Shown here in pieces: positions 903-15,610 of a DNA stretch of 64,000 nt. This DNA is from Pseudomonas sp. BSw22131 (GTDB taxonomy: Bacteria; Pseudomonadota; Gammaproteobacteria; Pseudomonadales; Pseudomonadaceae): assembly GCF_026810445.1 (NCBI RefSeq), contig NZ_CP113949.1:3782001-3846000 (forward strand). Direction: 5' to 3'. The position numbers and the translations under genes are program-made. How positions within the stretch are numbered: position 1 is the first letter of the stretch; each line of letters begins with the position of its first letter. The notes under the pieces are model-generated. The model was not told where the DNA came from, did not search any database, and saw nothing but the letters and a program-made list of their open reading frames with translations.

Positions 903-2468
903 ATGCGCAACAACCAGCCCGTCACCCAACGCGACCGCACGTTTCCCGCCAACCAACGATTGATCTCTACCACCGATGTACGCGGCGTGATCACTTACTG
1001 CAATGATGCGTTTGTTGAGATCAGCGGCTTTTCCTACGAAGAGTTGCTGAAGGCGCCCCACAATACCGTGCGCCACCCTGACGTTCCGTCGGCAGTATTC
1101 GAGCACATGTGGGTCACGCTCAAGCAGGGCCAGCCTTGGATGGGCATCATCAAGAACCGTTGCAAGAACGGCGATCATTATTGGGTGAACGCCTACGTGA
1201 CGCCGGTCTTCGAAAAACAGCAGGTGGTGGGCTATGAATCGGTACGGATCAAACCCACGGCGGAACAGATCCGCCGCGCTGAAGCGCTCTACGCACGTAT
1301 CAACAGCGGCAAGCCGGCAGTGCCTGGGCATGACAAATGGCTACCGGTCGTAAAGAACTGGCTTCCGTTTATTCTCGTGAGCCAGTTGAGCTTTCTGATT
1401 GGGGCATTCCTGAACTCTCACTGGGGCTTTGCGCTCGCTGCTGTGCTGTCAGTGCCGCTGGGGCTGCTGGGCCTGAGCTGGCAACAACGCGGAATCAAGC
1501 GCTTGCTGCGTCTTGCCGAACAAACCACCTCTGACCCGCTGATCGCCCAGATGTACACCGACAGCCGAGGTCCGCAGGCACGTCTTGAGATGTCGATCCT
1601 CAGCCAGGAGGCGCGTTTGAAAACTTGCCTGACTCGCCTGCAGGACACGGCGGAACACCTCACCGATCAAGCCAGACAGTCCGACAGCCTCGCACATGCC
1701 AGCTCCACGGGGCTGGAGCGCCAGCGTGTGGAAACCGAACAGGTTGCCACCGCGATCAATCAAATGGCCGCGACCACTCAAGAGGTTGCCAGCCACGTGC
1801 AACGCACCGCTGATGCCACGCAGCAGGCCAACGCCCTCACCCGCCGAGGCCGTGACATCGCCAGCGAAACCCGTGAAGCCATTCAGCGGCTCTCTGCGTC
1901 CGTAGGCGAGACCGGACTGACCGTCACCCAGTTGGCCAAGGACAGCGACGAAATCGGCGGTGTGGTGGATGTCATCAAAGGCATTGCAGACCAGACCAAC
2001 CTGCTGGCACTCAACGCGGCCATCGAAGCCGCGCGTGCCGGGGAAATGGGCCGCGGTTTTGCAGTCGTTGCCGATGAAGTGCGCCAGTTGGCACAACGCA
2101 CCACGGCCTCAACTGTCCAGATCCACAGCCTGATCGCCAAGCTGCAACACACTGCCAACGCGGCCGTGCAGACCATGAGCATCGGACACCGCCAGGCCGA
2201 AGAAGGCGTTGAACGGGTGCTGGAAGCGGACAAGGCGCTCGTGGGCATCAGCGACGCCGTTGCGAACATCACTGAAATGACAACCCAGATCGCTGCAGCG
2301 ACCGAGGAGCAAAGCTCGGTGGCCGAAGAAGTCAGCCGCAACATCACTACCATTGCCCAACTGTCCGATCAGACATCCGAGGAAGCTCGCCGCTCCGCCA
2401 CACTCAGCGCCGAACTGGCCGCAACCGCCAACACCCAATACTCGTTGGTAGAACGGTTTAATCGATAG
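903..2468 (+). CDS. aer: Aer-like PAS-domain methyl-accepting chemotaxis protein
   Basis: The 521-residue protein has the architecture of the aerotaxis receptor Aer. An N-terminal PAS domain (about 20-110, [15 protein letters not shown] through [11 protein letters not shown]) would bind FAD and sense redox state. A hydrophobic anchor follows at about 150-195. The cytoplasmic signalling hairpin has the highly conserved tip [20 protein letters not shown] at about 362-381, flanked by coiled coils. There is no periplasmic ligand domain, as expected for a receptor that monitors electron transport rather than an external ligand. Output would go through CheW and CheA to the flagella. In P. aeruginosa, from memory, aer also lies close to the cbb3 oxidase genes, which occur here 12 kb downstream beyond an accessory island. 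A strong terminator follows. Confidence 0.87.
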
Positions 2469-2485: not shown

Positions 2486-2523
2486 AAAAGCCCCGGCATC
2501 TGATTGTGCCGGGGCTTTTTTTT
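2486..2523 (+). terminator. Rho-independent terminator after aer
   Basis: A perfect stem GCCCCGGCA/TGCCGGGGC with an 8-base loop is followed by eight T residues. It ends the aer transcript. Beyond it the sequence becomes AT-richer, and a possible weak promoter (TTGACA at 2614, TATTAT at 2635, 15-base spacer) precedes the next gene. Confidence 0.92.
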
Positions 2524-2763
2524 GCCTGCTTTAAATGAAGGAATTAGTGCTTGCGTAGCTGGTAACGATGCTGGTGCTTAGAGCTTTTTTTGTTCGATCA
2601 GTGAAATGTAGGGTTGACACCCCAGCCGCATTCCTATTATTTGAAATACAGATTAGATACATAGTTACCGCGCAGAGACGGTACTTGTCTGATCTTCATT
2701 ATTAATGGCTTTGGTACGCATGGCACTGTGAGTGAGGCTTGTGTGTGCCAATGAGGAAAACTC

Positions 2764-3429
2764 ATGAATACAGCTAAAACATCATATCCATTACCCTTGG
2801 TTTTTGTTCCAAGCTCCGACCCAGAGGATGGGTTACTGCAGACTGTCGATCTTTCACAGCCAATACTGGTTAATGTCGAAGTCTGGAAAGCAGCGGAGCC
2901 ACATTATTATGCCCAGCTTGTCTTGGATGATCAGCTGATTGGAGATGCAAGGACTATCACAGAAAGCGACGCACCCGGCGACACAATGACTTTCGAGCTG
3001 CCTGAAAAGCTGCTTGAATCTAACGGCATTTATAAGCTGGCGTTCCGAGCATCAAGTCCCTTTAGTGAACAGCATGTTGTCTCCGAATCTATCGAACTGA
3101 AAGTCGACCGTACCCCACCAGGCGCAGCGATGCTAGCCCCTATTATTTTCCCCAACGTCACACTAGGAGAAGACTTGATTGGCAAGATCGCGGGTTACTC
3201 AGATATGCAAATCGGAGACTCTATACGGACACTATGCAATGGCGTGATGGGTCCTGGTCATACTGTGACAATGGAGGAGACCCTCGAAAAACCCATTTCC
3301 ATTGTTTTCAGTCGAGCTTATCTGGAGGGCTTGGCAAGTGAAAGTGTACTGATCGAATACTTTGTCACAGACAGGGCCGGTAATGTTTCAGTCATGTCGA
3401 TGCCGGTGGTTTTGACGATGAATGTCTGA
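2764..3429 (+). CDS. Two-module Ig-like repeat protein of unknown function
   Basis: This 221-residue protein consists of two beta-rich modules of about 110 residues (roughly 10-115 and 116-221). The same module type recurs in the genes at 4207, 7642 and 9570 and in the decayed copy at 3461. The second module ends with IEYFVTDRAGNVSV, closely matching YYTVTDRAGNES in the 7642 product. Each module contains a GDxI(x)2-4 strand segment (IGDSIRTL here) and ends in a V-x-V-type strand, suggesting an immunoglobulin-like fold. No signal peptide, lipobox or membrane segment is visible. The ATG at 2764 follows a good ribosome site (GAGGA at 2753-2757). The gene has lower GC than the core genes. I do not recognise a characterised homologue; the fold is inferred from pattern only. 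Confidence 0.72.
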   Translation: MNTAKTSYPLPLVFVPSSDPEDGLLQTVDLSQPILVNVEVWKAAEPHYYAQLVLDDQLIGDARTITESDAPGDTMTFELPEKLLESNGIYKLAFRASSPFSEQHVVSESIELKVDRTPPGAAMLAPIIFPNVTLGEDLIGKIAGYSDMQIGDSIRTLCNGVMGPGHTVTMEETLEKPISIVFSRAYLEGLASESVLIEYFVTDRAGNVSVMSMPVVLTMNV

Positions 3430-3460
3430 CTATTCGATATCTGACTGAGCATGACCTTCT

Positions 3461-3785
3461 AAAGATTGCCAGGATTTGGCGATTCCGTTTCCGGGCAGAC
3501 TCACGCGGCTTGCGACCGTCAACGTGGATTCAAGAACTTGATGCGTCATGCCCGGATACGCTGCGGTGACGCCGTAGATACCATTCATACGAATTTCCCC
3601 AGAGTACAGGGAGCTAAAAAACAATCCACAAGGATGATATCAACCAAGCCATAACGATACCTTTTGCATGGACTTTTCTCGAAAGCGAGGACGCCAGGAC
3701 TGTGGAAATCGAGTACGGCGTCACAGATCGAGCAGGTAAAACGTCGACTAAATCGCTACTTGCAAGGCTGATTCTGAATGTGTGA
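3461..3785 (+). pseudogene. Decayed Ig-like module of the same family
   Basis: Reading across three frames recovers a broken copy of the module. The stretch from about 3470 to 3574 gives ...ATVNVDSRT, a stop, then MPGYAAVTP and another stop. A frame change then gives VDTIHTNFPRVQGAKK (3573-3620), and another gives DDINQAITIPFAWTFLE, IEYGVTDRAGKTSTKS and ILNV-stop (3633-3785). The order of these pieces follows the intact modules exactly: PGYTGIAWGDQIRSFWG and YYTVTDRAGNES in the 7642 product, IGDSIRTL and IEYFVTDRAGN in the 2764 product. At least two frameshifts and two in-frame stops separate it from a functional gene. It lies 30 bp downstream of its intact relative and probably records an old duplication or a displaced 3' segment. 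Confidence 0.75.
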
Positions 3786-4206
3786 CACGAAAAGCACCCT
3801 ATCCATTTGGACTTACCTTATAAATTATGACACCCGTTTGACCACCATAGAAAATAAAATTAAAAATATATCAATGATTTTATGAGCCCGATCTCGCAAT
3901 AGCCAATCTGACGCCTCACAGCATCTTGGGAATCGTCTGTAATACCCGTCTGACATATTGGACCTTTTGTAAAGATGGCGCTTCCAGCAATGCCCGTAAT
4001 CATTGGCCCAATCTGAAATTCCAGACACACAGCGGTTTTGAATAATGAGTAGTGTTTTCAACCGATATCGCGTCAAGCTGTGCAAATTCGAAAGTTGACA
4101 TCAAGAAATTTCGAACTGAACATAGGTCTCGCAAACACTTCTCCTACAGCCAAAACCGAGAAATCCGAGCGCTTCGAACATGCCTAACAAAACTCAGGGA
4201 GCACCT
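3786..4206. other. Non-coding AT-rich gap
   Basis: I see no convincing gene in these 420 bases. An open frame on the minus strand (3825-4085) has no ribosome site and no recognisable motif. The right end holds TTGACA at 4096 with no good -10 at the usual distance, and the AGGGAG ribosome site of the next gene at about 4196-4201. Confidence 0.5.
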
Positions 4207-4833
4207 ATGGGAAATGATGACAAAAACAAAAATTCAGATACCTGGCACTATATCGACGCACGTAACATAGCCACTTGTGACAGTGAAGCGTCAGCGCAGC
4301 CAACTGCCCTGTTATTGCCTGTTCAAGAGACCCCCATGCAACCGGGATCAATAGAACTCCCGGAAGATAGCGAGTCAGTTGATATTTACAAGGAAGTACT
4401 CAAACGCGCCCCCGGTTTCCCATGGGCAACCGAAGGCCCTAGAGACCGAAAGCCTGCAATTTTCCTGGCACCCTACTTGACCGGGCTGGATAGCGACATA
4501 GTGACGCCTGAGCAAATCGTCGAAGGCGTGTATATCAACATTCCGCGGTCGAGGAATTTATGGAGAGGCGACCTGATAAAAACGGTCTGGGGCTACAACA
4601 CTTTTTATACGACGCTAGACGCGAATCCTCATCGTGATGCGCCAAGACTGATCCAATACATGAACAGCGAACAATTAACCAATTATCAAAGTGGCGTAGT
4701 TCACGTCCATTACGAGGTTGTGCGTCGTTCAAGACTGGTGGGGATTTCCGAGCGACTTATTATCACGCTGGGAGGTAAAGGCAGGCCTCGGAATCCAAGG
4801 CGCCGCAGATCAGTAGGACGAAAAGGCTTTTAG
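4207..4833 (+). CDS. Single Ig-like module protein with basic C-terminal tail
   Basis: The start is placed at the ATG at 4207 because AGGGAG lies six bases upstream; the earlier in-frame ATG at 4180 has no ribosome site. The resulting 208-residue protein has a polar, low-complexity N-terminal half rich in S, P and E (to about residue 60). One Ig-like module follows at about 85-190: it contains WRGDLIKTVWGYNTFYTTL and VVHVHYEVVRRSRLVGISE, echoing the GDxIxxxWxG and Y-x-V strands of the neighbouring repeat proteins. It ends in a strongly basic tail (RPRNPRRRRSVGRKGF). Nothing indicates export. The function is unknown; the basic tail could bind nucleic acid or an acidic partner, but that is speculation. 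A convergent terminator separates it from the autotransporter. Confidence 0.68.
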   Translation: MGNDDKNKNSDTWHYIDARNIATCDSEASAQPTALLLPVQETPMQPGSIELPEDSESVDIYKEVLKRAPGFPWATEGPRDRKPAIFLAPYLTGLDSDIVTPEQIVEGVYINIPRSRNLWRGDLIKTVWGYNTFYTTLDANPHRDAPRLIQYMNSEQLTNYQSGVVHVHYEVVRRSRLVGISERLIITLGGKGRPRNPRRRRSVGRKGF

Positions 4834-4834
4834 A

Positions 4835-4868
4835 CAAAAAATCCCAGCCACATGACGTGGCTGGGATT
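4835..4868 (-). terminator. Terminator between convergent genes
   Basis: A 12-bp perfect stem AATCCCAGCCAC/GTGGCTGGGATT with loop ATGAC has an A run on its left (T run on the minus strand). It is therefore best suited to end the minus-strand autotransporter transcript, and it also lies directly after the plus-strand gene. Confidence 0.85.
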
Positions 4869-4889
4869 CATCAGCGCTCGATAGAGGTT

Positions 4890-7163
4890 TTAGAAGGCTA
4901 GCGTCAGACCGACGTTAGCGCCCCAGGGTTGCTCGACATGTTCGCCTTTCATGTAATCAAGGTCGGCGTGCAGTTGAATTCGCTTGGAAAGCGATACGGC
5001 AATCCCGCCGCCAAGTTCTACGCGAGAACCGGACAGGTTGTTATCGAACCGGGTTTCATTGACTTTCACATCATTGTTGCGAGCAAACTCATGCGCCAAG
5101 GCAACACGAACGTACGGCTGAACAACGCTGCCATCCTCAAGCGTAAAGTTACGACCCGCAGTAGTCCCGACTTTGCCCAGCAGAGACTTCGCGCCACTGT
5201 TGCTAGCCTTCAAACCATTATCCAGCCGGTAGCTGTCCCCGCCGACCAGCACGCCGGACAGCTGAGTGTACGGTTCGACGAAGTAGTCATCCGCCAGTTT
5301 GATGTGCTTGCCAACCTCCACCGAACCACCCACGCCGGTGTTGTCGTAGCGACCTTTGGTTTTGCTGCCGTCACTCATCGCAACCTTCGCTTCATTGCGA
5401 AATTTGTTGAGTTTGAGCACGCCGTCGACGTAGTAACCGTCGTCGGACAACCACGTGCCGTAACCCCCGAAGTAGTAACTGTTCACCTGGCCGGTTGTGC
5501 CACGGCTCAAATCCAGATCAGATTTGCTGTAACCGCCCATCACACCCAACACCAGACTGCCGTTGCCGACCGAAATCGGCGCATCGGCACCCAACGACAA
5601 CCCTTGCTGCTTCTGCTGGTAATCGACCCCTGTGCCCGTATTGGCATTGAAACGATTGCCATAGGCTCTGATCCAGCCACTCCCCTGCTCCTGCCCACGG
5701 ACCTCACCCATGCGGCTGCGCAACGTCGTCAACTCACTGTTCCAGATCGCAGGCGCCGCGTTGAACAACGCCAACGCGCTTTGCGTCGACGGACTGATGG
5801 TCTTGCCCTCACCCACGATGAACCAGTCGTTTTCCTGCTTCTCGAGCAAGTAGGAATAAGCGCCGAGGTCGACACGATTGCCGATCAAGCCGAATTGAGC
5901 ATCACCGCCTTCGGTGTGGACGATTCGTAGCGGTTCAAACTCAGCGGGTACCGCTTCAACGCCAGTGTTCTGCACATTCAACAGGTGCTGTCCTGTGGCT
6001 TGCCCGTCTACCTGAAGCAGGTCGCCTTGAGCATTGTCCAGGTTGATGCGCATGTCGAAGGTGCCGTTGCCAGCGAGTTCATTCAGCGAGAGGGTGTGAA
6101 AGGCGTTGCCGGAAAAGCTGACTCGACCTCTTTCCAAGGTCAGTTTCTTCACATCACTGTCACCGATCAGTTGCCAATGGGCGCCAGTGGATACCGCCAT
6201 GTCATTCCCATTGGAGACGTTACCGGTCAACAGAGTGTTGTTTCCCAATTCTAAATCCAGCTTGCTACCGCCATCGGCGATTAGATTACCCATAAGCCGG
6301 CTGCCGTCGACGGCGAGATCCAGTTCACTTTCACCAGAGACCTCCACCAGGTTTCCATTCCCGGACAACAATGAAGCATTGTTTTTAACGGTAATGGCCG
6401 CAATTGCTCCTTTGCTTGATACACCAAGGACCTTGATGGACGGGCCGTTGATCCCTTGAACAATTGAGTCGTCAATATCGACGAAAGTGGGCAAATTATG
6501 CTGGGGTCCGCCGCCAGGCAAAGCACCCACTGGCCGAATTCTGAGGCCGATATCTTCACCTGTGATCAAGCTTTTCTCTTTAATCGTTATCCTTGAGGTA
6601 TTTGTGTCAACCCCCATAGCTTCACCGACAGCACCACGCGATGCTGTGACATTGCTACCACTCAAAGACAGCAGGCCCTTGGCCGAAAACAGACCGGTTC
6701 CAACCCCCGAAATGAGACTATCGGAAATGATAACTTCGGACCCTACCGAGACAGCCCCGGGGCTTCCCGCCTCCAGTCTTAGACCTGTGCTACGCGAACT
6801 GCTAATTCGAGTTTTGTTTGCGATGAGCTTGCCACCGGTCAAAGTCAATGCAGGAGAAGAATAGATGGAATTATTTCGCGCATCGTCCACAACTGCCTCA
6901 CTCAGGTAAACAGTTGCAAAATTCCCCGCAACACCACTCACTTCAGCACCTTCGACGTTCAAAATCGAGTGAGGTAGCAAGCGATACAACATCCAAGTCG
7001 ACTCATTTACATTCAGCGTTTCACCGGAAGCAACATGTACATACTCAAGACTTGTGGTACGCGTCGGTTCTTCTCCCATTGCATATTCAATTGAAAAAAA
7101 ACCGCCCATTATGCCGATAACGGTCACTTTCGTCATACGTCTTAAATCACAGTACCCACTCAT
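4890..7163 (-). CDS. Pertactin-type autotransporter with outer-membrane beta-barrel
   Basis: This is a type V secretion (autotransporter) protein. The start is placed at 7163 (757 residues), where AGGG lies seven bases upstream. The reading frame is open 16 codons further to 7211, and an ATG at 7136 would begin directly on the signal-like segment MTKVTVIGIMGGFFSIEYAMG. The passenger (to about residue 475) is a beta-helix of short repeats rich in G, S, T, N and V, as in pertactin and AidA-like adhesins. The last 265 residues form a 12-strand beta-barrel beginning near GSGWIRAYG and ending in the canonical aromatic C-terminus VGLTLAF recognised by the BAM complex. The signal sequence is weak, and no catalytic triad is evident in the passenger, so adhesion is more likely than proteolysis. 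It sits inside the Ig-like module island in opposite orientation. Confidence 0.88.
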   Translation of the reverse strand: MSGYCDLRRMTKVTVIGIMGGFFSIEYAMGEEPTRTTSLEYVHVASGETLNVNESTWMLYRLLPHSILNVEGAEVSGVAGNFATVYLSEAVVDDARNNSIYSSPALTLTGGKLIANKTRISSSRSTGLRLEAGSPGAVSVGSEVIISDSLISGVGTGLFSAKGLLSLSGSNVTASRGAVGEAMGVDTNTSRITIKEKSLITGEDIGLRIRPVGALPGGGPQHNLPTFVDIDDSIVQGINGPSIKVLGVSSKGAIAAITVKNNASLLSGNGNLVEVSGESELDLAVDGSRLMGNLIADGGSKLDLELGNNTLLTGNVSNGNDMAVSTGAHWQLIGDSDVKKLTLERGRVSFSGNAFHTLSLNELAGNGTFDMRINLDNAQGDLLQVDGQATGQHLLNVQNTGVEAVPAEFEPLRIVHTEGGDAQFGLIGNRVDLGAYSYLLEKQENDWFIVGEGKTISPSTQSALALFNAAPAIWNSELTTLRSRMGEVRGQEQGSGWIRAYGNRFNANTGTGVDYQQKQQGLSLGADAPISVGNGSLVLGVMGGYSKSDLDLSRGTTGQVNSYYFGGYGTWLSDDGYYVDGVLKLNKFRNEAKVAMSDGSKTKGRYDNTGVGGSVEVGKHIKLADDYFVEPYTQLSGVLVGGDSYRLDNGLKASNSGAKSLLGKVGTTAGRNFTLEDGSVVQPYVRVALAHEFARNNDVKVNETRFDNNLSGSRVELGGGIAVSLSKRIQLHADLDYMKGEHVEQPWGANVGLTLAF

Positions 7164-7261
7164 TCCATTACCCTGATGACATTCAAATGAATGATCAGTG
7201 TGGACTGGCATTTTGGGTTAACGAGTACTTTCCACGGCATAAGCTATCGGCCACTTCCTAA

Positions 7262-7584
7262 ATTTACGTCGTACTCATCCTACATGACAGACACTGGAAA
7301 GCGCCCGAACAAATCGAATCCAGCCTCAATGCTCTGACAACTCAGATCACCGCCATACCAGATTTGATCCTCCGCAAAAACCGAGAACTTTTTAAAAGCC
7401 AAGTTGGAAAATCCTCGCTGACAACACTTTCATTAATAATTATTTAACACCAGGCATTGACACAACCCTAATACTGATATTACTTGAAAAAGCGATCAGA
7501 AAAGCGATTGATGAGAATCAACAATATCTGATCGATGAAATGAAACTTAAGGCACGCCATCACCGGGCGTCACAAAAAACTTAA
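7262..7584 (+). pseudogene. Frameshifted remnant of an unknown gene
   Basis: Two adjoining frames both read as plausible protein. The first (7262-7447) gives RHWKAPEQIESSLNALTTQ and PDLILRKNRELFKSQVG. The second, open from 7396 to the stop at 7582-7584, gives ILADNTFINNYLTPGIDTT and EKAIRKAIDENQQYLIDEM. One frame change around 7396-7420 would join them into a helical, charged polypeptide of about 105 residues. No start codon or ribosome site is present at the left end, so the 5' part is missing as well. I do not recognise the family. The remnant occupies the gap between the autotransporter and the next Ig-like gene. Confidence 0.5.
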
Positions 7585-7641
7585 TAAAAGCGACCACTTT
7601 TCAGGCCGAAGTTCTCGGCTGCTTAAATATGGAGAAAGGCT

Positions 7642-9504
7642 ATGTGCAACTCACGCAACCCCCGTTTACTGATTACACGTCCTCGCAAATCAAAGCCTCG
7701 TGATTTGAACCCACCGACCATCCCATTGGCTGATCCAATTGATGGATTATTGACTCTGGAAGACTTGCAGCAACAGGTCACTCTGTCTCTGACTGTTTGG
7801 GACGACGCCCTGCCGGGCGATACGTATAAGCTCCGGTGGAATAACGAACCCACCAATGTCTTTAAGTCGATTGCGGACGACGAATTGCCTGGCGATCTAT
7901 TGTCGTTGGTAATTCCCGCATCATTACTGGTTGATGGCGTCCATCAGGCGGGATACACCGCGCGCAGTTCCGATGGCGGTCAGGAAGGCGAGTCGCCGGA
8001 TACTCCGGTGATTGTAGATCGCACGGCTCCTGGCGGGGATCTGCTAGCAGCGTTGGTGTTTCCTGCTGTAACGCAAGACGGAATGCTTACATCTGAAGAG
8101 CTGAAGGCTTTGGGCAACGTGCTCACGGCAGAGGTACCCGGGTATACAGGTATCGCCTGGGGCGACCAGATTCGGTCGTTCTGGGGAGCAGTTCCAGGGC
8201 CAGAGCACACGGTTATTGAAGAAGAAGTCACCATGAATCGGGTGATGCTGAACTTTTCGCGTGCGTTTCTTGAAAGCCTGGGTGATGTCACAGATCCGGT
8301 CTATTACACCGTGACAGATCGTGCAGGCAATGAATCAATTCATTCGCTGCCCAAGCGATTCCGCTTATTCCTGCGCGATGTTCCCCAGGACTTCCCGGCC
8401 CCTCTGTGTGCCCAGGCCGATGACTCAGTCATTGATGATTCCGATGCACGTGCTGCTGTCCTGGTGGAGATCCCTCATTACCCGGATGCTCAACCCGGCG
8501 ACAAAGTCATGCTGTATTGGGGTGAAACAGCGATGCCCGAGGCTACGTTATTGAGTGGTGATGAAACTCAAAATCCTATGTTAGGGATAAATGTGCGTTA
8601 CGCAATCATTGCCCTGCCAGGCGACGGCCCAGTATCCCTGCGTTACGAGGCCCGCCGCAATGGCGTGCTGATTGGCAGCTCGCTGCTGCTCGATGTAAAC
8701 GTCTATCTTGAGCTGCCAGGGCCCCAAGATCCGGACCCAGAAACTCCAGAAAATGAAGCCCTGGCACTACCTGTCATCAAAGGAAGCAGCGACAATGCTA
8801 ACAATGAAGACAACGTTATTGATGAAGACGATTTTCTTCTGGAGGCTCATGCAACTGTTCAATGGAACGATGAGTTTGCCGTCAGCGACGTTATTCGCTT
8901 GTACTGGGGATCACAAACCGCGCCCGTTGTATTTCCGATTAAATCGACCGACCTTAATAAAGATTTAGTACTCACTATTCCGAACCAGCTGATGGCGAAC
9001 GAAGGATCAGGTGCTTTGATCAAGGTCTTCTACACAGTGACTCACAACGGCAATCCAAATACCTCCCGCTCTGCGGAACAAGGTGTTGTCGTAAATGCTA
9101 AAGGCGACCTACCGGGGGGTGTCGACGGCTTAGCTGCTCCGATTTTCTCCAATGCCAACGCTAATAACGCAATTAGCCCGATTCTAAGTCCAGATGGCAC
9201 ACCTATTAAAATTATGCCATACGAGCATATTGATAAGTATCCGCGAGTCACTCTGGTCTTCCATGGTTATAACGCTGCAAATGGAAACGTACCGGTTCCA
9301 GGTGCAAGCCTCGAAGAGACTCATGTACTTGATGAGTTCGAAATGATCAGCGGCTACAGTTTCCGAGTGTCGGACAGACAACTTCGATTGATTTGCACAG
9401 GTCGTGCTGAGGCTTACTACCGCGTCGAAGGCCCTAATGGGCCAGTCAATTCCAAGACTGCCCCGGTGCTTATCCGCATGGCTACGCCTGGCCAAGGCTG
9501 CTAA
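7642..9504 (+). CDS. Five-module Ig-like repeat protein of unknown function
   Basis: The 620-residue protein starts at an ATG with a strong ribosome site (GGAGAAAGG, about 7630-7638). It contains about five Ig-like modules, at roughly 30-130, 131-245, 250-355, 365-485 and 490-615. Recurring features are a P-G-D or S-D-V/I segment leading into a W-containing strand (PGDTYKLRWN, WGDQIRSFWG, PGDKVMLYWG, SDVIRLYWG) and a closing tyrosine strand (VYYTVTDRAGN, VSLRYEARR, KVFYTVTHNG, AYYRVEG). The first two modules match the two-module 2764 protein in order. The first 25 residues are basic and proline-rich rather than hydrophobic, so no Sec signal is visible. It ends in GQGC. Function is unknown; repeated Ig-like folds usually serve as stalks or binding surfaces. 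Confidence 0.72.
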   Translation: MCNSRNPRLLITRPRKSKPRDLNPPTIPLADPIDGLLTLEDLQQQVTLSLTVWDDALPGDTYKLRWNNEPTNVFKSIADDELPGDLLSLVIPASLLVDGVHQAGYTARSSDGGQEGESPDTPVIVDRTAPGGDLLAALVFPAVTQDGMLTSEELKALGNVLTAEVPGYTGIAWGDQIRSFWGAVPGPEHTVIEEEVTMNRVMLNFSRAFLESLGDVTDPVYYTVTDRAGNESIHSLPKRFRLFLRDVPQDFPAPLCAQADDSVIDDSDARAAVLVEIPHYPDAQPGDKVMLYWGETAMPEATLLSGDETQNPMLGINVRYAIIALPGDGPVSLRYEARRNGVLIGSSLLLDVNVYLELPGPQDPDPETPENEALALPVIKGSSDNANNEDNVIDEDDFLLEAHATVQWNDEFAVSDVIRLYWGSQTAPVVFPIKSTDLNKDLVLTIPNQLMANEGSGALIKVFYTVTHNGNPNTSRSAEQGVVVNAKGDLPGGVDGLAAPIFSNANANNAISPILSPDGTPIKIMPYEHIDKYPRVTLVFHGYNAANGNVPVPGASLEETHVLDEFEMISGYSFRVSDRQLRLICTGRAEAYYRVEGPNGPVNSKTAPVLIRMATPGQGC

Positions 9505-9510
9505 CTGAAA

Positions 9511-9536
9511 GGAAGCGGGCCTGAGGGCTCGCTTTC
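9511..9536 (+). terminator. Stem-loop between the two large Ig-like genes
   Basis: An 11-bp stem (GGAAGCGGGCC with GGCTCGCTTTC, two G-T pairs) and a TGAG loop lie seven bases after the 7642 stop codon. No T run follows, so it may slow or trim the transcript rather than end it. Confidence 0.45.
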
Positions 9537-9569
9537 AATAAAATAACAACCAAATTGAAAAAACACTTT

Positions 9570-12521
9570 ATGAATAATATAGATAAAACACTTTTGCCTG
9601 CACCTGCGATGCAGAACCTTCACGACCCAAGTGGCATCGGTTACGCCGATACGCTTGACCCGCACGTGCCCCTATCAGTACGTGTTGGACCTTACGTGAC
9701 GATCGCAGAAGGCGACATTATTGATCTTTATTGTAACGGCCAAATTGCGGCTAACTATACAGTTAAACTTGATGACCTGACCCCAGAAACACCCTCTTTC
9801 GTTGTTCTCCAACTTGATCAAAAATTTATTAGTCCGACGAATATAAACCTGCACTACAACGTTACCGAACCGATCGGAGGGCTACAGAATCAATCATCGC
9901 AGCTCTCGGTGAATGTGAAGTTGACCTTGCCTGGCGGCACCGACATCAACCCATCTACACCGTGGGAGAATGAAGCATTGGCCCTGCCGGCCGTATACCC
10001 CGCAGGCATCATCACTTCACCAGAAAGGGTGACTGTTGAGTTGGCGGCCTATGTGAACATGAGTGTCGGCGACCGAGTCACACTTTCCTGGCATGGCGAA
10101 CTTATCATGAAGGCAATTGAGCACGAGGACGATCTGGGCAAGCCAATTGTTATCCCTGTTAGCAAGGAAATTATTGAGCGCGCAGGCGACTCCGACATGA
10201 TCGAAGTTCGGTATGAGGTCCGGGACCTAGTCAACAACTGGTCTCGATGGTCACTGGCGACCTACGTGGACGTTGAGGCAGGACAATCTGCTCTATCCGC
10301 GCCAGTAGTCCCCCAAGCACCAAATATGGAACTAGACCTTGACAGGATACATGGGAACGCCGTACAGGCATTGATCTTGTCCCAACCGGAAATCGCCATA
10401 GGCGATGAAATCACCCTAGTTGTATCGCGAAGCACCGCCGAAGGCCTGCCGCTGGAACCCTACACAGACTTAAAACGGGTTGAGAATACGTCAAGCTTCA
10501 TTGACTTCCTGATCCCTAACCAACAATTCCAACCCATCACTCAAGGCCGGGCACTGCTCAAGTACATCGTTAACAAACCCTCAGGGGAAGCGCTGCGTTC
10601 AAAGAGTCTGCCGCTAAAAGTCATTGGCAGTGCCATGGAATTAGCGCTGCCCCGTGTGCCTGTCGTAGAAATGAATAACGGCGTACTGGACCCGACGACC
10701 AATAATGTGATCGTTGAAGTGCCGCCTTACTATTTTATGGGCAGTGGCAATGACGTGACACTGGTATGGATGGGTAAAAATGCCAGTGGCGCAAACGTCA
10801 TGCACGAAGAGGTGAAGAACCTCAACAACAGCGACGTTGGCAAATCCGTGAGCTTTCTGATTCCCGATCAAAAAGTCAGCGCTCTCGCGGGAGGGACACT
10901 TGAGATTTATTACAACGTGACCACCTTCTCTCGCGCCTTCTTCAAATCGCCAGTCCTGCAACTGACCGTTAGTGATGACAGCAGCGTTCCGCTGAAAGCC
11001 CCAACCGTTGACGGCGTCGAAAGCGGCGGCGTGCTAGATCCCAGCGACATTGTGCTGGAGGCGATAGTCCGAATAGAGCCATACGCCATGTCTGTCGGAG
11101 ACAAAATTTCGCTCTATTGGGACGGGCAAGGCTCCAGCGGCACTTACAGTGATTCGACGACAATCAACAGCGGCACGGTAGGCAGACAAGTCGTTTTTCG
11201 AGTTAATAAGACGTACGTCGACGCCAACATCAACAACAGCGTTGTAGTGTGGTACGAGGTAGACCGTAACAACCAAAAGTTCGTGTCTGAACAGTTGCAG
11301 TTTTCCGTGGGCAATATCGTTTACCCCGATATTCCGGATCCGACGGTAAAAGAGTCCGATGGCTACACCCTCGACCCTGCAAACACCATCGACGGAGCAA
11401 CGGTGGTAATTGACGCCAGCGCAATGCTCAAAATTGGCGACACCCTTCAGGTAAGTTGGAACGGCCCAAAAGGCAGCGACCAAAAAGAAAAAGTCATCAC
11501 CCCCACCGAGGCCGGCCAGACGCTGGAAGTGGTTTTCGCCAGCGCCCTGGTCAGTGTCAACGACGGGCAAACGGTGCAGGTGTCTTACAGCGTGACTCGC
11601 GCCAGTGGCATCGTTCAAGAGTCGGCCGTCGTGGCGCTGAAGGTGTTGAGCGCTGTGCTGGAACTGCCGGCACCGACAATGGACACGGTGGGGCCCGATG
11701 GCATCGTTCGGCCTTCGTTGATTCCCGATTCGGGCGCAACTGTGCGGGTCAACTATCCGGGCATGACCGAAGGAGATTTGGTCATGGTCCGCTGGATGGG
11801 CAATACGCTGGAGAGCACGCCTGCGCAAACGGTCGGGACCGAGACGACGCTGACGTTTAGCGTATCGAAGGCAGCGATCCTGGCCTCCGAAGGCAGTGCT
11901 GCGGTAGTGAGCTATTTTGTACAGCGCCAGGGTGCGGACCGTGAATCCGAAAAGCTGGCCGTGACCGTGTCATCTGCACTGGTGTTCGACACCTCGCCAG
12001 TGGTGCTGGGTGGCAAGGTTTACCTGTTGCCGGGCAATCCCGATCTGCTGCCCACCTTTCCGCAAGGCACCACGGTCAAGCGCATGGCCGAAGGCGGTCG
12101 ACCGCCCTACGTCTATAGCTCATCGGACACCAAAGTTGTGCATGTCGACACCGACGGTCTGGTATCGGTACGAGGTAATGGCGGCGCTTCGATTACCGCC
12201 ACGGACGCAGCGGGTGAAACCAAGGCCTACAGTGTTTCAGTGACAGGCGTGATCCACTGCATCGGCGTGGGCGCAGGTAACCTGACACAGCTGTCCAATG
12301 CGGCGTCCAACATCAACGCGCAGATCCCCAGCATTCAGGCGCTGATTGAAATCTATAACGCCTACAAAGGGCGGTGGCCCATGGGTAATGGCCTTTACTG
12401 GTCTTCGACGGTCGCCAAAAATGTGCTGGGCGCCAAGTGGTATTACGCGAAAGACCTGGCCACCGGAAAGGACTTCAAATACCTCCACATCAATGCCGCA
12501 CTGGGCGTTGCCATTCGATAA
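9570..12521 (+). CDS. Large Ig-like repeat protein with BIG2 and distinct C-terminal domain
   Basis: A 983-residue protein if begun at the ATG at 9570. A TTG at 9555 would add five residues, but MNNIDKTLLPAPAM lines up with the N-terminus of the 2764 protein (MNTAKTSYPLPLV); neither start has a clear ribosome site. Seven Ig-like modules span about residues 10-805, each with a GDxV/IxLxWxG core (VGDRVTLSWHGE, VGDKISLYWDGQG, IGDTLQVSWNGPKG, EGDLVMVRWMGN). They are followed by a bacterial Ig-like group 2 (BIG2) domain at about 805-893 (VYSSSDTKVVHVDTDGLVSV). The last 90 residues form a different domain containing IQALIEIYNAYKGRWPMG and YWSSTVAKN. There is no signal peptide. The 3' third looks GC-richer than the 5' part. 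The biochemical role is unknown. Confidence 0.74.
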   Translation: MNNIDKTLLPAPAMQNLHDPSGIGYADTLDPHVPLSVRVGPYVTIAEGDIIDLYCNGQIAANYTVKLDDLTPETPSFVVLQLDQKFISPTNINLHYNVTEPIGGLQNQSSQLSVNVKLTLPGGTDINPSTPWENEALALPAVYPAGIITSPERVTVELAAYVNMSVGDRVTLSWHGELIMKAIEHEDDLGKPIVIPVSKEIIERAGDSDMIEVRYEVRDLVNNWSRWSLATYVDVEAGQSALSAPVVPQAPNMELDLDRIHGNAVQALILSQPEIAIGDEITLVVSRSTAEGLPLEPYTDLKRVENTSSFIDFLIPNQQFQPITQGRALLKYIVNKPSGEALRSKSLPLKVIGSAMELALPRVPVVEMNNGVLDPTTNNVIVEVPPYYFMGSGNDVTLVWMGKNASGANVMHEEVKNLNNSDVGKSVSFLIPDQKVSALAGGTLEIYYNVTTFSRAFFKSPVLQLTVSDDSSVPLKAPTVDGVESGGVLDPSDIVLEAIVRIEPYAMSVGDKISLYWDGQGSSGTYSDSTTINSGTVGRQVVFRVNKTYVDANINNSVVVWYEVDRNNQKFVSEQLQFSVGNIVYPDIPDPTVKESDGYTLDPANTIDGATVVIDASAMLKIGDTLQVSWNGPKGSDQKEKVITPTEAGQTLEVVFASALVSVNDGQTVQVSYSVTRASGIVQESAVVALKVLSAVLELPAPTMDTVGPDGIVRPSLIPDSGATVRVNYPGMTEGDLVMVRWMGNTLESTPAQTVGTETTLTFSVSKAAILASEGSAAVVSYFVQRQGADRESEKLAVTVSSALVFDTSPVVLGGKVYLLPGNPDLLPTFPQGTTVKRMAEGGRPPYVYSSSDTKVVHVDTDGLVSVRGNGGASITATDAAGETKAYSVSVTGVIHCIGVGAGNLTQLSNAASNINAQIPSIQALIEIYNAYKGRWPMGNGLYWSSTVAKNVLGAKWYYAKDLATGKDFKYLHINAALGVAIR

Positions 12522-12653: not shown

Positions 12654-13310
12654 TTAATCCCGTAAAAAGCGGGCGATCTGTTCAGCAGCCCTTTGCAGGC
12701 ACTCATCCTGAGTGACACCTGCGACCTTCAGGGGCTTGAGGTCGTGGTTGGCTGTCGGCACCCATTGCACAGTGATCGCACTCGACAATATGTAGCCCTC
12801 AACCGCCTCTCGATTACCCAATGCGTCCCGTTCGCCCTGAATGATCAGCGTCGGCGTTTGCAACGGCTCGAGGTGCGCAACCCTAGGTTTCTCAGGCTTA
12901 CCCACAGCGTAAAACGGGTAGCCAAGACACACCAGCGCGTCCACCTGCAACTCGTCTGCGATCACGCTGGCCATCCGCCCGCCCATAGACTTGCCGCCAA
13001 TCGCCAATCGCCCACCTACGTTATCCCGCAGGGTTTGGTACACCTCGCGCCAATGCTCCAGCAATCTGGGCTGCGGATTGGGCGGACGCCTTTTGCCATC
13101 GATCCGTCGCTGAGCCATATAAGGAAACTCAAAGCGCATGACACCTACGCCCTGTTCAGCGAGGCGTTGCGCCATGTCGTTCATGAACTCACTGTCCATT
13201 GGGGCGCCAGCGCCATGGGCCAGGATCAACGTCGCTTGATGACCCGCTAGCGCCTTGGGCGCGCTCCAGAGCCAACCCTGCCGAGTCGCCAATGTCGCGC
13301 ACTGGTCCAT
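12654..13310 (-). CDS. Alpha/beta hydrolase of the dienelactone-hydrolase-like family
   Basis: The predicted 218-residue enzyme begins MDQCATLATRQGWLW. The frame stays open further upstream, and a GTG at 13334 is an alternative start. Early on it has LILAHGAGAPMDSEFM, the oxyanion region typical of KANL3/Tex30-like small hydrolases. The nucleophile elbow is GGKSMGGRMAS (Ser about 111), and the strand DALVCLGYPFY follows. Conserved TLIIQGERDALGN provides the acid, and a late histidine (TANHDLKPL) completes the triad. This family is cytosolic; substrates are generally unknown. It is transcribed away from the cbb3 operon and towards the Ig-like gene, and its C-terminus is followed by a 130-bp gap with no obvious terminator. 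Confidence 0.82.
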   Translation of the reverse strand: MDQCATLATRQGWLWSAPKALAGHQATLILAHGAGAPMDSEFMNDMAQRLAEQGVGVMRFEFPYMAQRRIDGKRRPPNPQPRLLEHWREVYQTLRDNVGGRLAIGGKSMGGRMASVIADELQVDALVCLGYPFYAVGKPEKPRVAHLEPLQTPTLIIQGERDALGNREAVEGYILSSAITVQWVPTANHDLKPLKVAGVTQDECLQRAAEQIARFLRD

Positions 13311-13690
13311 ATCACTGCTGTTCTTTTTAACCACGCCTGCCTCTTTATTGATGACTGTGTGTTGCGATGGGCAACCCCCCACCCAAAGCGGCGATTATGC
13401 CCAGCCAATGCCGCCTGCGGACAGCAAAGGTTCAGCCAGGCCTGAGTACGCTGCTTTGGCACTTCGGAAAGAGACAGCCAGGCTCTGGACGCCCCAAACC
13501 TCACGCAACCGGGCGGCTCCACTGGATGATCTTTGCTCCGCCATCGCAGACTATCGTTGCAGTCGCGAGGGTCATTTGCCTGCTCGGGCCACATTTTTAT
13601 GGGCAGTGATGAGTGCAATTTGCTACGTCTTTTGTATACATTTATCGAAAAAGGCTCCGCCTAAAGTTCATGGAAAGTAGGCGCAGTATC
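13311..13690. other. Non-coding region with a GTATAC palindrome
   Basis: Several open frames cross this stretch, but none has a ribosome site or recognisable content. The perfect palindrome TGTATACA lies at 13633-13640, and a second GTATAC occurs at 13784-13789. Such 8-bp palindromes can be operators for GntR-type regulators, but no such regulator is present nearby. Confidence 0.35.
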
Positions 13691-14167: not shown

Positions 14168-15610
14168 ATGAGCACAGCAACCATCCCGACTGCTTATAAC
14201 TACAAGGTGGTTCGCCAATTCGCCATCATGACGGTCGTCTGGGGGATTCTTGGCATGGGGCTCGGCGTTTTCATCGCTTGCCAGCTGGTGTGGCCGGAGT
14301 TGAATTTCGGCCTGCCGTGGACCACGTTTGGACGGTTGCGCCCGCTGCACACCAACCTTGTGATCTTCGCCTTTGCCGGTTGCGCCTTGTTCGCGACGTC
14401 TTACTACGTCGTGCAACGGACCTGCCAGACGCGGCTGATCTCGGACGGCATGGCAGCATTTCACTTCTGGGGATGGCAAGCGGTCATCGTCGGCGCCATC
14501 GTCACCTTGCCGCTGGGCTACACCACCACCAAGGAATACGCCGAGCTGGAATGGCCAATCGCGATCCTGCTGGCGGTGGTCTGGATCACTTATGGGGTGG
14601 TGTTTTTCGGGACCATCGCCAAACGCAAAACCAGACACATCTACGTCGCCAACTGGTTTTACGGCGCCTTTATCATCGTCACGGCCATGCTGCACATCGT
14701 CAACCACATCGCTCTGCCGGTCAGCTTTTTCAAATCCTATTCCGCCTATTCAGGCGCCACCGACGCGATGATCCAATGGTGGTACGGGCACAACGCCGTG
14801 GGCTTTTTCCTGACCACGGGCTTTCTCGGGATGATGTATTACTTCGTGCCCAAACAGGCCGAACGCCCGATCTATTCCTATCGCCTGTCCATCGTGCATT
14901 TCTGGGCGTTGATCACGCTGTACATCTGGGCCGGCCCGCACCATTTGCACTACACTGCGCTGCCCGACTGGGCGCAATCGCTGGGCATGGCAATGTCGAT
15001 CATCCTGCTGGCACCCAGTTGGGGCGGCATGATCAACGGCATGATGACCCTCTCAGGCGCCTGGCATAAGTTGCATTCCGACCCCATCCTGCGCTTCCTC
15101 GTGGTCTCGCTGGCGTTCTACGGCATGTCGACCTTCGAAGGGCCGATGATGTCCATCAAGACCGTCAACTCACTGTCCCACTACACCGACTGGACCATCG
15201 GCCACGTACACGCCGGGGCGCTGGGTTGGGTCGCGATGATTTCCATCGGTTCGCTGTACCACATGATTCCGAAAATCTTCGGCCGGCCGCAGATGCATAG
15301 CATCGGCCTGATCAATACGCACTTCTGGCTGGCAACCATTGGCACCGTTCTCTACATCGCCTCGATGTGGGTCAACGGCATTACACAGGGCTTGATGTGG
15401 CGAGCGATCAACGATGACGGCACGCTGACTTACTCGTTCGTCGAAGCGATGCAAGCCAGCCATCCGGGCTACATCGTCCGGGCGCTGGGCGGTGCGATCT
15501 TCGCCAGCGGCATGCTGTTCATGGCCTACAACGTGTTCCGCACGGTTCACGCCTCCAGCGCTGAAGAAGCAGAAGCCGCCGCGCAGATCGCTGTCGTGGG
15601 AGCCCACTGA
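14168..15610 (+). CDS. ccoN: Cytochrome cbb3 oxidase catalytic subunit I
   Basis: The 480-residue, 12-helix heme-copper oxidase subunit reduces oxygen to water in the inner membrane with very high oxygen affinity. Diagnostic segments are [18 protein letters not shown] (heme b ligand), MVVR-type segment [15 protein letters not shown] (Cu-B histidine and the following tyrosine region characteristic of C-type oxidases), [15 protein letters not shown] (Cu-B histidine pair) and [15 protein letters not shown] (paired hemes b and b3). It is the first gene of ccoNOQP and overlaps ccoO by one base (TGATG). No ANR-type palindrome is visible in the 850 bp upstream, so this looks like the less oxygen-regulated of the two cco operons usual in Pseudomonas; that assignment is an inference. 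Confidence 0.97.

What the first reader, a model, noticed from the sequence alone, without database searches (positions are those of the whole stretch)
2764..12521. Island of signal-peptide-less Ig-like module proteins with 1, 2, 5 and 7+ modules
Four intact genes (2764, 4207, 7642, 9570) and one decayed copy encode proteins assembled from the same module of about 110 residues. Each module has a GDxI/V-x2-3-W-x-G strand and a closing Y-x-V strand; several share VTDRAGN. Copy number per protein varies from one to seven, only the largest has a BIG2 domain and a separate C-terminal domain, and none has a Sec signal. A surface autotransporter sits in the middle. The combination suggests a family that expands and contracts by module duplication, perhaps a secreted or intracellular scaffold. 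The function is unknown, and the link between the genes rests on sequence similarity and clustering.
Basis: partly seen in the sequence, partly recalled or inferred. Interest (0 to 1): 0.72.

Follow-up and report, generated by a model that had tools for sequence, protein, structure and literature searches.

The report
Leaderless intimin-like proteins beside an autotransporter
Many Pseudomonas genomes carry a conserved gene cluster in which rod-shaped, immunoglobulin-like proteins that look like surface adhesins but lack any recognisable export signal sit directly beside one kind of outer-membrane autotransporter, which suggests an undescribed two-part surface system.

The parts
2764..3429 (+). 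M2 gene: 221 aa, two Ig modules (residues 6-118, 121-221), no head; cut-down paralogue of modules 1-2 of g7642
3660..3786 (+). Remnant of a decayed module gene (readable VEIEYGVTDRAGKTSTKSLLARLILNV, then stop); tandem two-module copies occur in relatives (three each in L021 and L026)
   Evidence: bounds approximate
4207..4833 (+). M1 gene: 208 aa, one module (residues 84-191) after a long N-terminal extension; tail-to-tail with the autotransporter
4890..7211 (-). Pertactin-type autotransporter, 773 aa: Pertactin PF03212 at 354-463, barrel PF03797 at 513-751
7642..9504 (+). M5 gene: 620 aa, five Ig modules; residues 1-18 under pLDDT 50; Cys585 and Cys620 in the last module and its tail
9570..12521 (+). 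M7-head gene: 983 aa, seven Ig modules (residues 7-804), then Big_2 and intimin-type C-type-lectin-like head
12003..12518 (+). Head of g9570 (residues 812-983): Big_2 plus lectin-like domain with RWPMGN..YWSST
903..2468 (+). Conserved left neighbour: PAS-MCP receptor (called aer here by resemblance), marks the fixed chromosomal site
12654..13382 (-). Conserved right neighbour: alpha/beta hydrolase (PF20408), called abh here
14168..15610 (+). Conserved right neighbour, cbb3 oxidase subunit ccoN (name recalled from sequence, no family search run)

Best explanation
The island is a surface-adhesion locus in two halves. One half is an ordinary type Va autotransporter with a pertactin-like passenger, exported by its own signal peptide and barrel. 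The other half is a set of rods of Ig modules without signal peptides, at least one capped by an intimin/invasin-type head (Big_2 plus C-type-lectin-like domain). The rods work outside the cytoplasm, like the passenger of an inverse autotransporter cut off from its barrel, most likely attached to or displayed with the autotransporter, and the heads bind a host or neighbour-cell ligand. Shown here: gene content, order and conservation, genus-wide linkage to this autotransporter clade, Ig fold by prediction, intimin-like head by profile and fold, no recognisable Sec signal, no inverse-autotransporter barrel, purifying selection in related loci. Inferred: disulfide, location outside the cytoplasm, contact with the autotransporter, adhesion. 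Unknown: the export route.
Against: No export signal is known for these proteins, so surface location is unproven. Cysteine content (0.43%) is low but above the autotransporters' 0.16%. Distance correlation of passenger with module genes is no better than with the neighbour abh, so no specific co-evolution is shown. Three of 91 close and 7 of 20 more distant autotransporter loci have no module gene by this profile (two of the three are one genome with tandem autotransporters, one lies at a contig end). 17 of 87 module clusters have no such autotransporter near, and loci L044-L047 show none in the stretch fetched. The 22 loci were found with patterns from the head gene, so the presence of that gene in them is not independent evidence.
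Confidence: 0.5

Rival explanations
1. The Ig proteins are exported on their own, most plausibly by a type I system elsewhere in the genome, and act as free or cell-bound adhesins; the autotransporter is a co-regulated but physically independent adhesin.
Confidence: 0.25
2. The Ig proteins stay in the cytoplasm and serve the autotransporter, for instance as dedicated chaperones or regulators, or are an unrelated scaffold.
For: No recognisable signal peptide; operon-like placement directly upstream of the autotransporter.
Against: Intimin-type and RCC1 parts, and in Yersinia an InvE-type domain in the next ORF, conserved cysteine pairs, fast divergence like the exposed passenger.
Confidence: 0.13
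3. The proteins are type III or type VI secretion substrates that share a locus with an autotransporter.
For: No Sec signal; first 18 residues of the M5 model under pLDDT 50; the window's own genome has both a type III-like ATPase score (579 bits) and VipB.
Against: Of 91 genomes with the autotransporter, 55 have no type III ATPase score above the flagellar group and 3 have no VipB; G045 and G087 have neither yet carry module genes beside the autotransporter (L073; L100). The type III split rests on a visible score gap (549 bits and up against 536 and below) in a capped list, not on the family cut-off, which only 4 of 119 pass.
Confidence: 0.06
4. They are decayed inverse autotransporters that lost signal peptide and barrel.
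For: The head is intimin-like and the barrel is missing.
Against: The same barrel-less form across the syntenic loci, dN/dS below 1 where computable, an inverse-autotransporter barrel in only 1 of 119 genomes, and that one has no match to this autotransporter.
Confidence: 0.03

Closest known systems
Intimin / invasin / InvE (inverse autotransporters, type Ve)
   Same: Rod of Ig-like domains, then a Big_2-type domain and a C-type-lectin-like head; best profile hits (1e5u, 1f00) and top structural rows (1f00, 2zqk, 3ncx, then 1cwv and 5n40)
   Different: No signal peptide, no N-terminal barrel; a classical autotransporter is the usual neighbour instead
Pertactin-type classical autotransporters (type Va)
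   Same: The 4890-7211 gene: PF03212 and PF03797, signal-like N terminus by the loose rule
   Different: In this clade nearly always beside leaderless Ig-module genes (88 of 91)
Type I secreted Ig-rod adhesins (SiiE, MpAFP)
   Same: Long Ig rods without N-terminal signal; weak profile and fold similarity
   Different: No RTX or other type I domain found, much shorter, no transporter family in the flanking ORFs scanned
PF26918 (precomputed on homologues; name not available to me)
   Same: Listed on 117 of the 120 g9570 homologues shown
   Different: Not in the local library, so region and description are unknown

Membership tests
Inverse autotransporter (intimin/invasin) | C-terminal Ig rod ending in Big_2 plus C-type-lectin-like head | tested here: met
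Inverse autotransporter (intimin/invasin) | N-terminal signal peptide | tested here: not met
   First module starts at residue 7 of g9570; loose rule finds none in the four window module genes; no dedicated predictor was available
Inverse autotransporter (intimin/invasin) | N-terminal IAT beta-barrel (PF11924) | tested here: not met
   No such hit in g9570; 1 of 119 genomes, not this one
Classical autotransporter (for 4890-7211) | C-terminal PF03797 barrel and pertactin-type passenger | tested here: met
   E 1.1e-51 and 3.4e-27
Type I secreted adhesin | Ig rod without N-terminal signal, SiiE/MpAFP-like | tested here: inconclusive
Type I secreted adhesin | RTX repeats or type I C-terminal domain | tested here: not met
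   No such Pfam hit in the four window proteins or the five relatives scanned
Obligate type III or VI substrate | System present wherever the locus is | tested here: not met
   G045 and G087 have the locus and neither system by these searches
Bacterial Ig-like group 2 (Big_2) | Match over the curated cut-off | tested here: met
   Head only: 24.3 bits for the excised head, cut-off 22.8; 20.1 bits, below it, when the whole protein is scanned. The ~110-residue modules match no Pfam family over its cut-off

The most novel reading that the evidence does not exclude
A new two-component surface system of Pseudomonas: leaderless, disulfide-stapled Ig rods with interchangeable heads (intimin-type, RCC1, others) that leave the cell by a route not described so far and are captured or displayed by a dedicated pertactin-type autotransporter encoded beside them; in effect an intimin whose passenger and membrane anchor are separate genes.
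Probability: 0.3. Interest if true: 0.85.

Novelty: new variant of a known kind. Interest (0 to 1): 0.62.

Why it matters
Intimin and invasin are textbook cases (recalled) of an adhesive rod fused to its own exporter. Here relatives of their head occur widely in Pseudomonas: 58 of 119 genomes match the head profile, about 40 of them over 160 or more of its 178 positions by my count from the list, the rest only in part, often just the Big_2 half. In the cases examined there is no barrel or recognisable signal peptide, and module genes stand beside one autotransporter clade. If the proteins reach the surface, how they do so is a concrete open question in protein export that gene removal and localisation could answer. 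Where a source names the M5 relatives at all, it is mostly 'hypothetical protein' or, oddly, 'addiction module component'.

Tried and rejected
Module slippage: rejected by positional conservation. Phage origin: no relative in viral contigs, one scan. Wider spread: alignment A2 found only the own genome among 274 genomes drawn from the class; outside Pseudomonas only Yersinia thracica appeared among 36 loci of the genome scan. Co-evolution by distance correlation: not specific, the control gene abh gave as much. Known defence or phage families: PADLOC none, PHROGs only two weak hits of unknown function; NCBIfam gave weak hits below cut-off for the module proteins. Cysteines per module: single-cysteine modules 78 against 147 expected and pairs 44 against 35 over 497 thinned modules; spacing 30-42 in 19 of 44 (15% random); clade heterogeneity could produce part of this. 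The MpAFP and SiiE fold matches stand among unrelated rows and are not taken as membership. Foldseek 'pdb' searches were never accepted, so structural matches rest on VIA-align alone, which re-aligns Foldseek's top 1000. Ten paper searches listed no paper whose title or abstract start describes this gene pair; I saw listings and abstract starts only, no paper was opened, and the library lacks most subscription journals. Rows dropped before counts: one search listed 150 matches in 62 of the 69 positive genomes; 20 of the 29 lower-scoring autotransporter clusters were examined, chosen by hand; ORFs cut by a stretch end were dropped; loci L044-L047 are outside the 22-locus synteny count (no head and no autotransporter by these profiles).
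Full report
WHAT IS THERE. The window is part of an unnamed 5.74 Mb single-contig genome, Pseudomonas by the names of its closest relatives. Between a PAS-MCP receptor (903-2468) and an alpha/beta hydrolase followed by ccoN lie four module genes and one pertactin-type autotransporter. A trained profile counts 2, 1, 5 and 7 modules in g2764, g4207, g7642 and g9570. Independence test: a profile from g9570 alone finds g7642, g2764 and g4207 at 1.6e-23, 1.1e-10 and 1.3e-5, against 0.079 for the best of 900 shuffles. No Pfam or NCBIfam family covers the modules over its cut-off, PADLOC gives nothing and PHROGs two weak hits of unknown function. AlphaFold gives mainly beta-strand modules in g9570 (pLDDT 83.9, pTM 0.37) and g7642 (88.9, pTM 0.51); low pTM means that the arrangement of modules along the rod is not fixed.

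NO EXPORT PARTS. A loose signal-peptide rule accepts 55 of 59 autotransporter ORFs and 22 of 217 module ORFs, none of the 22 from the window, many of them deep in the ORF or in the first strand of a module. In 177 module proteins without head or RCC1 part the last detected module ends a median of 10 residues from the C terminus, but in many second-class partners no module was detected in the last 130-160 residues. An inverse-autotransporter barrel (PF11924) is found in 1 of 119 Pseudomonas genomes, one without a match to this autotransporter.

THE AUTOTRANSPORTER IS A PARTNER GENE. A genome scan with patterns from the head gene gave 36 loci, 35 Pseudomonas and one Yersinia. In 22 of 22 loci L013-L034 the order is single-module gene, tail-to-tail autotransporter, five-module gene (six modules in L024), head gene (two ORFs in L033); some carry further or broken module genes. 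Upstream, a two-module gene is there in 14, a four-module version in 2, none within reach in 6. The site is fixed: abh and ccoN in 22 of 22, aer in 21 of 22. In ten loci of the P. gingeri type the head gene is a giant of 2231-2957 aa and no autotransporter falls in the fetched stretch, but abh and ccoN are there in ten of ten; in G006, whose layout looks the same, an autotransporter lies just upstream between five-module genes. Loci L044-L047 show neither head nor autotransporter by these profiles. In 119 genomes, own one included, 70 of 87 listed module clusters lie within 10 kb of the autotransporter, 0.48 expected. Of the 91 clusters formed by the 94 best autotransporter matches, 70 had a listed module match, and 18 of the other 21 have module genes once searched by profile: 88 of 91. 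The exceptions are two tandem-autotransporter loci of one genome and a contig end. Of 20 lower-scoring autotransporter loci, hand-picked from 29, 13 have module genes and 7 do not. In the loci L003 and L049-L084 a module gene stands directly upstream of the autotransporter on the same strand in 29 cases, directly downstream in 9, and tail-to-tail in 8 (gap under 400 bases).

SECOND ISLAND. The same genome has another island (L003): two module genes, a second autotransporter, a head gene tail-to-tail with it, and a module gene with RCC1 repeats (PF13540, 2.3e-16), plus a lone two-module gene (L012).

EVOLUTION. Modules of one protein share about 25% identity (maximum 38%), while same-position modules of different loci share 49% and 58% on average, and the best match keeps its position in 1070 of 1155 and 732 of 735 comparisons. 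The rods are old; recent change is mostly by gene copies. Selection is purifying in related loci: dN/dS 0.09-0.54 in eight locus pairs, with two values not computable because synonymous sites were saturated; the window's own genes were not in those pairs. Mean pairwise identity over 23 loci (21 for aer): single-module gene 0.34, autotransporter passenger 0.36, five-module gene 0.48, head 0.53, seven-module part 0.55, abh 0.70, barrel 0.74, aer 0.89, ccoN 0.90. GC is about 46-57% from 2.5 to 11.5 kb against about 57-62% around it.

CYSTEINES. In the 40-row alignment of the five-module protein, Cys585 and Cys620 are both present in 25, both absent in 9, single in 6. In 28 of the 29 module genes directly upstream of an autotransporter a cysteine lies within 20 residues of the C terminus and another 117-141 residues from it; 22 of 29 have exactly two in the last 165 residues. 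Among 44 M5-type proteins of the window and L013-L048, 40 have the C-terminal cysteine, with the companion mostly 36-44 residues from the end. A constant C-terminal cysteine whose companion differs between classes is what a disulfide would look like. Module genes directly downstream or elsewhere have the C-terminal cysteine less often (20 of 43).

HOW IT MOST LIKELY WORKS. Rods and heads of this kind belong outside the cell; the autotransporter is the only outer-membrane element that I identified in the cluster (other ORFs of the related loci were not annotated). I therefore favour a split adhesin: autotransporter as anchor or dock, Ig proteins as rods, heads as ligand binders. Neither type III nor type VI secretion can be the obligate route: of 91 autotransporter genomes, 55 lack a type III ATPase by a score gap and 3 lack VipB; G045 and G087 lack both yet have the locus. 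A type I route is the main rival.

YERSINIA. In Yersinia thracica a five-module ORF (9683-11521 of L047) is followed by an ORF in another frame with BIg21 and InvE adhesion domains; the head profile compares weakly with it (hhalign probability 77.6, E 1.9e-5). It is described only.

LIMITS. Listings were capped (150 matches listed). Profiles were trained on family members, so the 88 of 91 count depends on that profile; the seven distant autotransporter loci without hits show that it does not fire everywhere. Names intimin, invasin, InvE and SiiE come from call outputs; their export biology is recalled, except SiiE as a type I substrate (abstract start in a listing).

Noticed in passing
L003 (G000:C1:1693000-1712900): Second island in the same genome with its own autotransporter, a module gene with the intimin-type head and one with RCC1 repeats instead.
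   Followed up: yes
L012 7631-8359: Lone two-module gene (242 aa) between genes that look by eye like an ABC amino-acid transporter and acyl-CoA dehydrogenases, without autotransporter or other module gene in 16 kb.
   Followed up: partly
L035-L043, L048: P. gingeri-type loci encode giants of 2231-2957 aa; in the two scanned, DUF4329 lies near the N terminus (above its cut-off in L035, below it in L036); seven of the ten giants have two heads.
   Followed up: partly
L054, L055 (genome G023): Two tandem pairs of this autotransporter without any module gene by profile.
   Followed up: no
L047 9683-12252: Yersinia thracica: module protein next to an ORF with BIg21 and InvE adhesion domains.
   Followed up: partly
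homologues: Several five-module homologues are named 'addiction module component' in public records; nothing found here supports that name.
   Followed up: no
window 2500-11500: The island has lower GC (about 46-57%) than its flanks although its site is conserved across species; a silencer-bound region is possible but untested.
   Followed up: no
L083 6356-8779: The one upstream partner gene without the C-terminal cysteine is 807 aa long and ends in an odd tail; it may be a wrong-frame or broken ORF.
   Followed up: no
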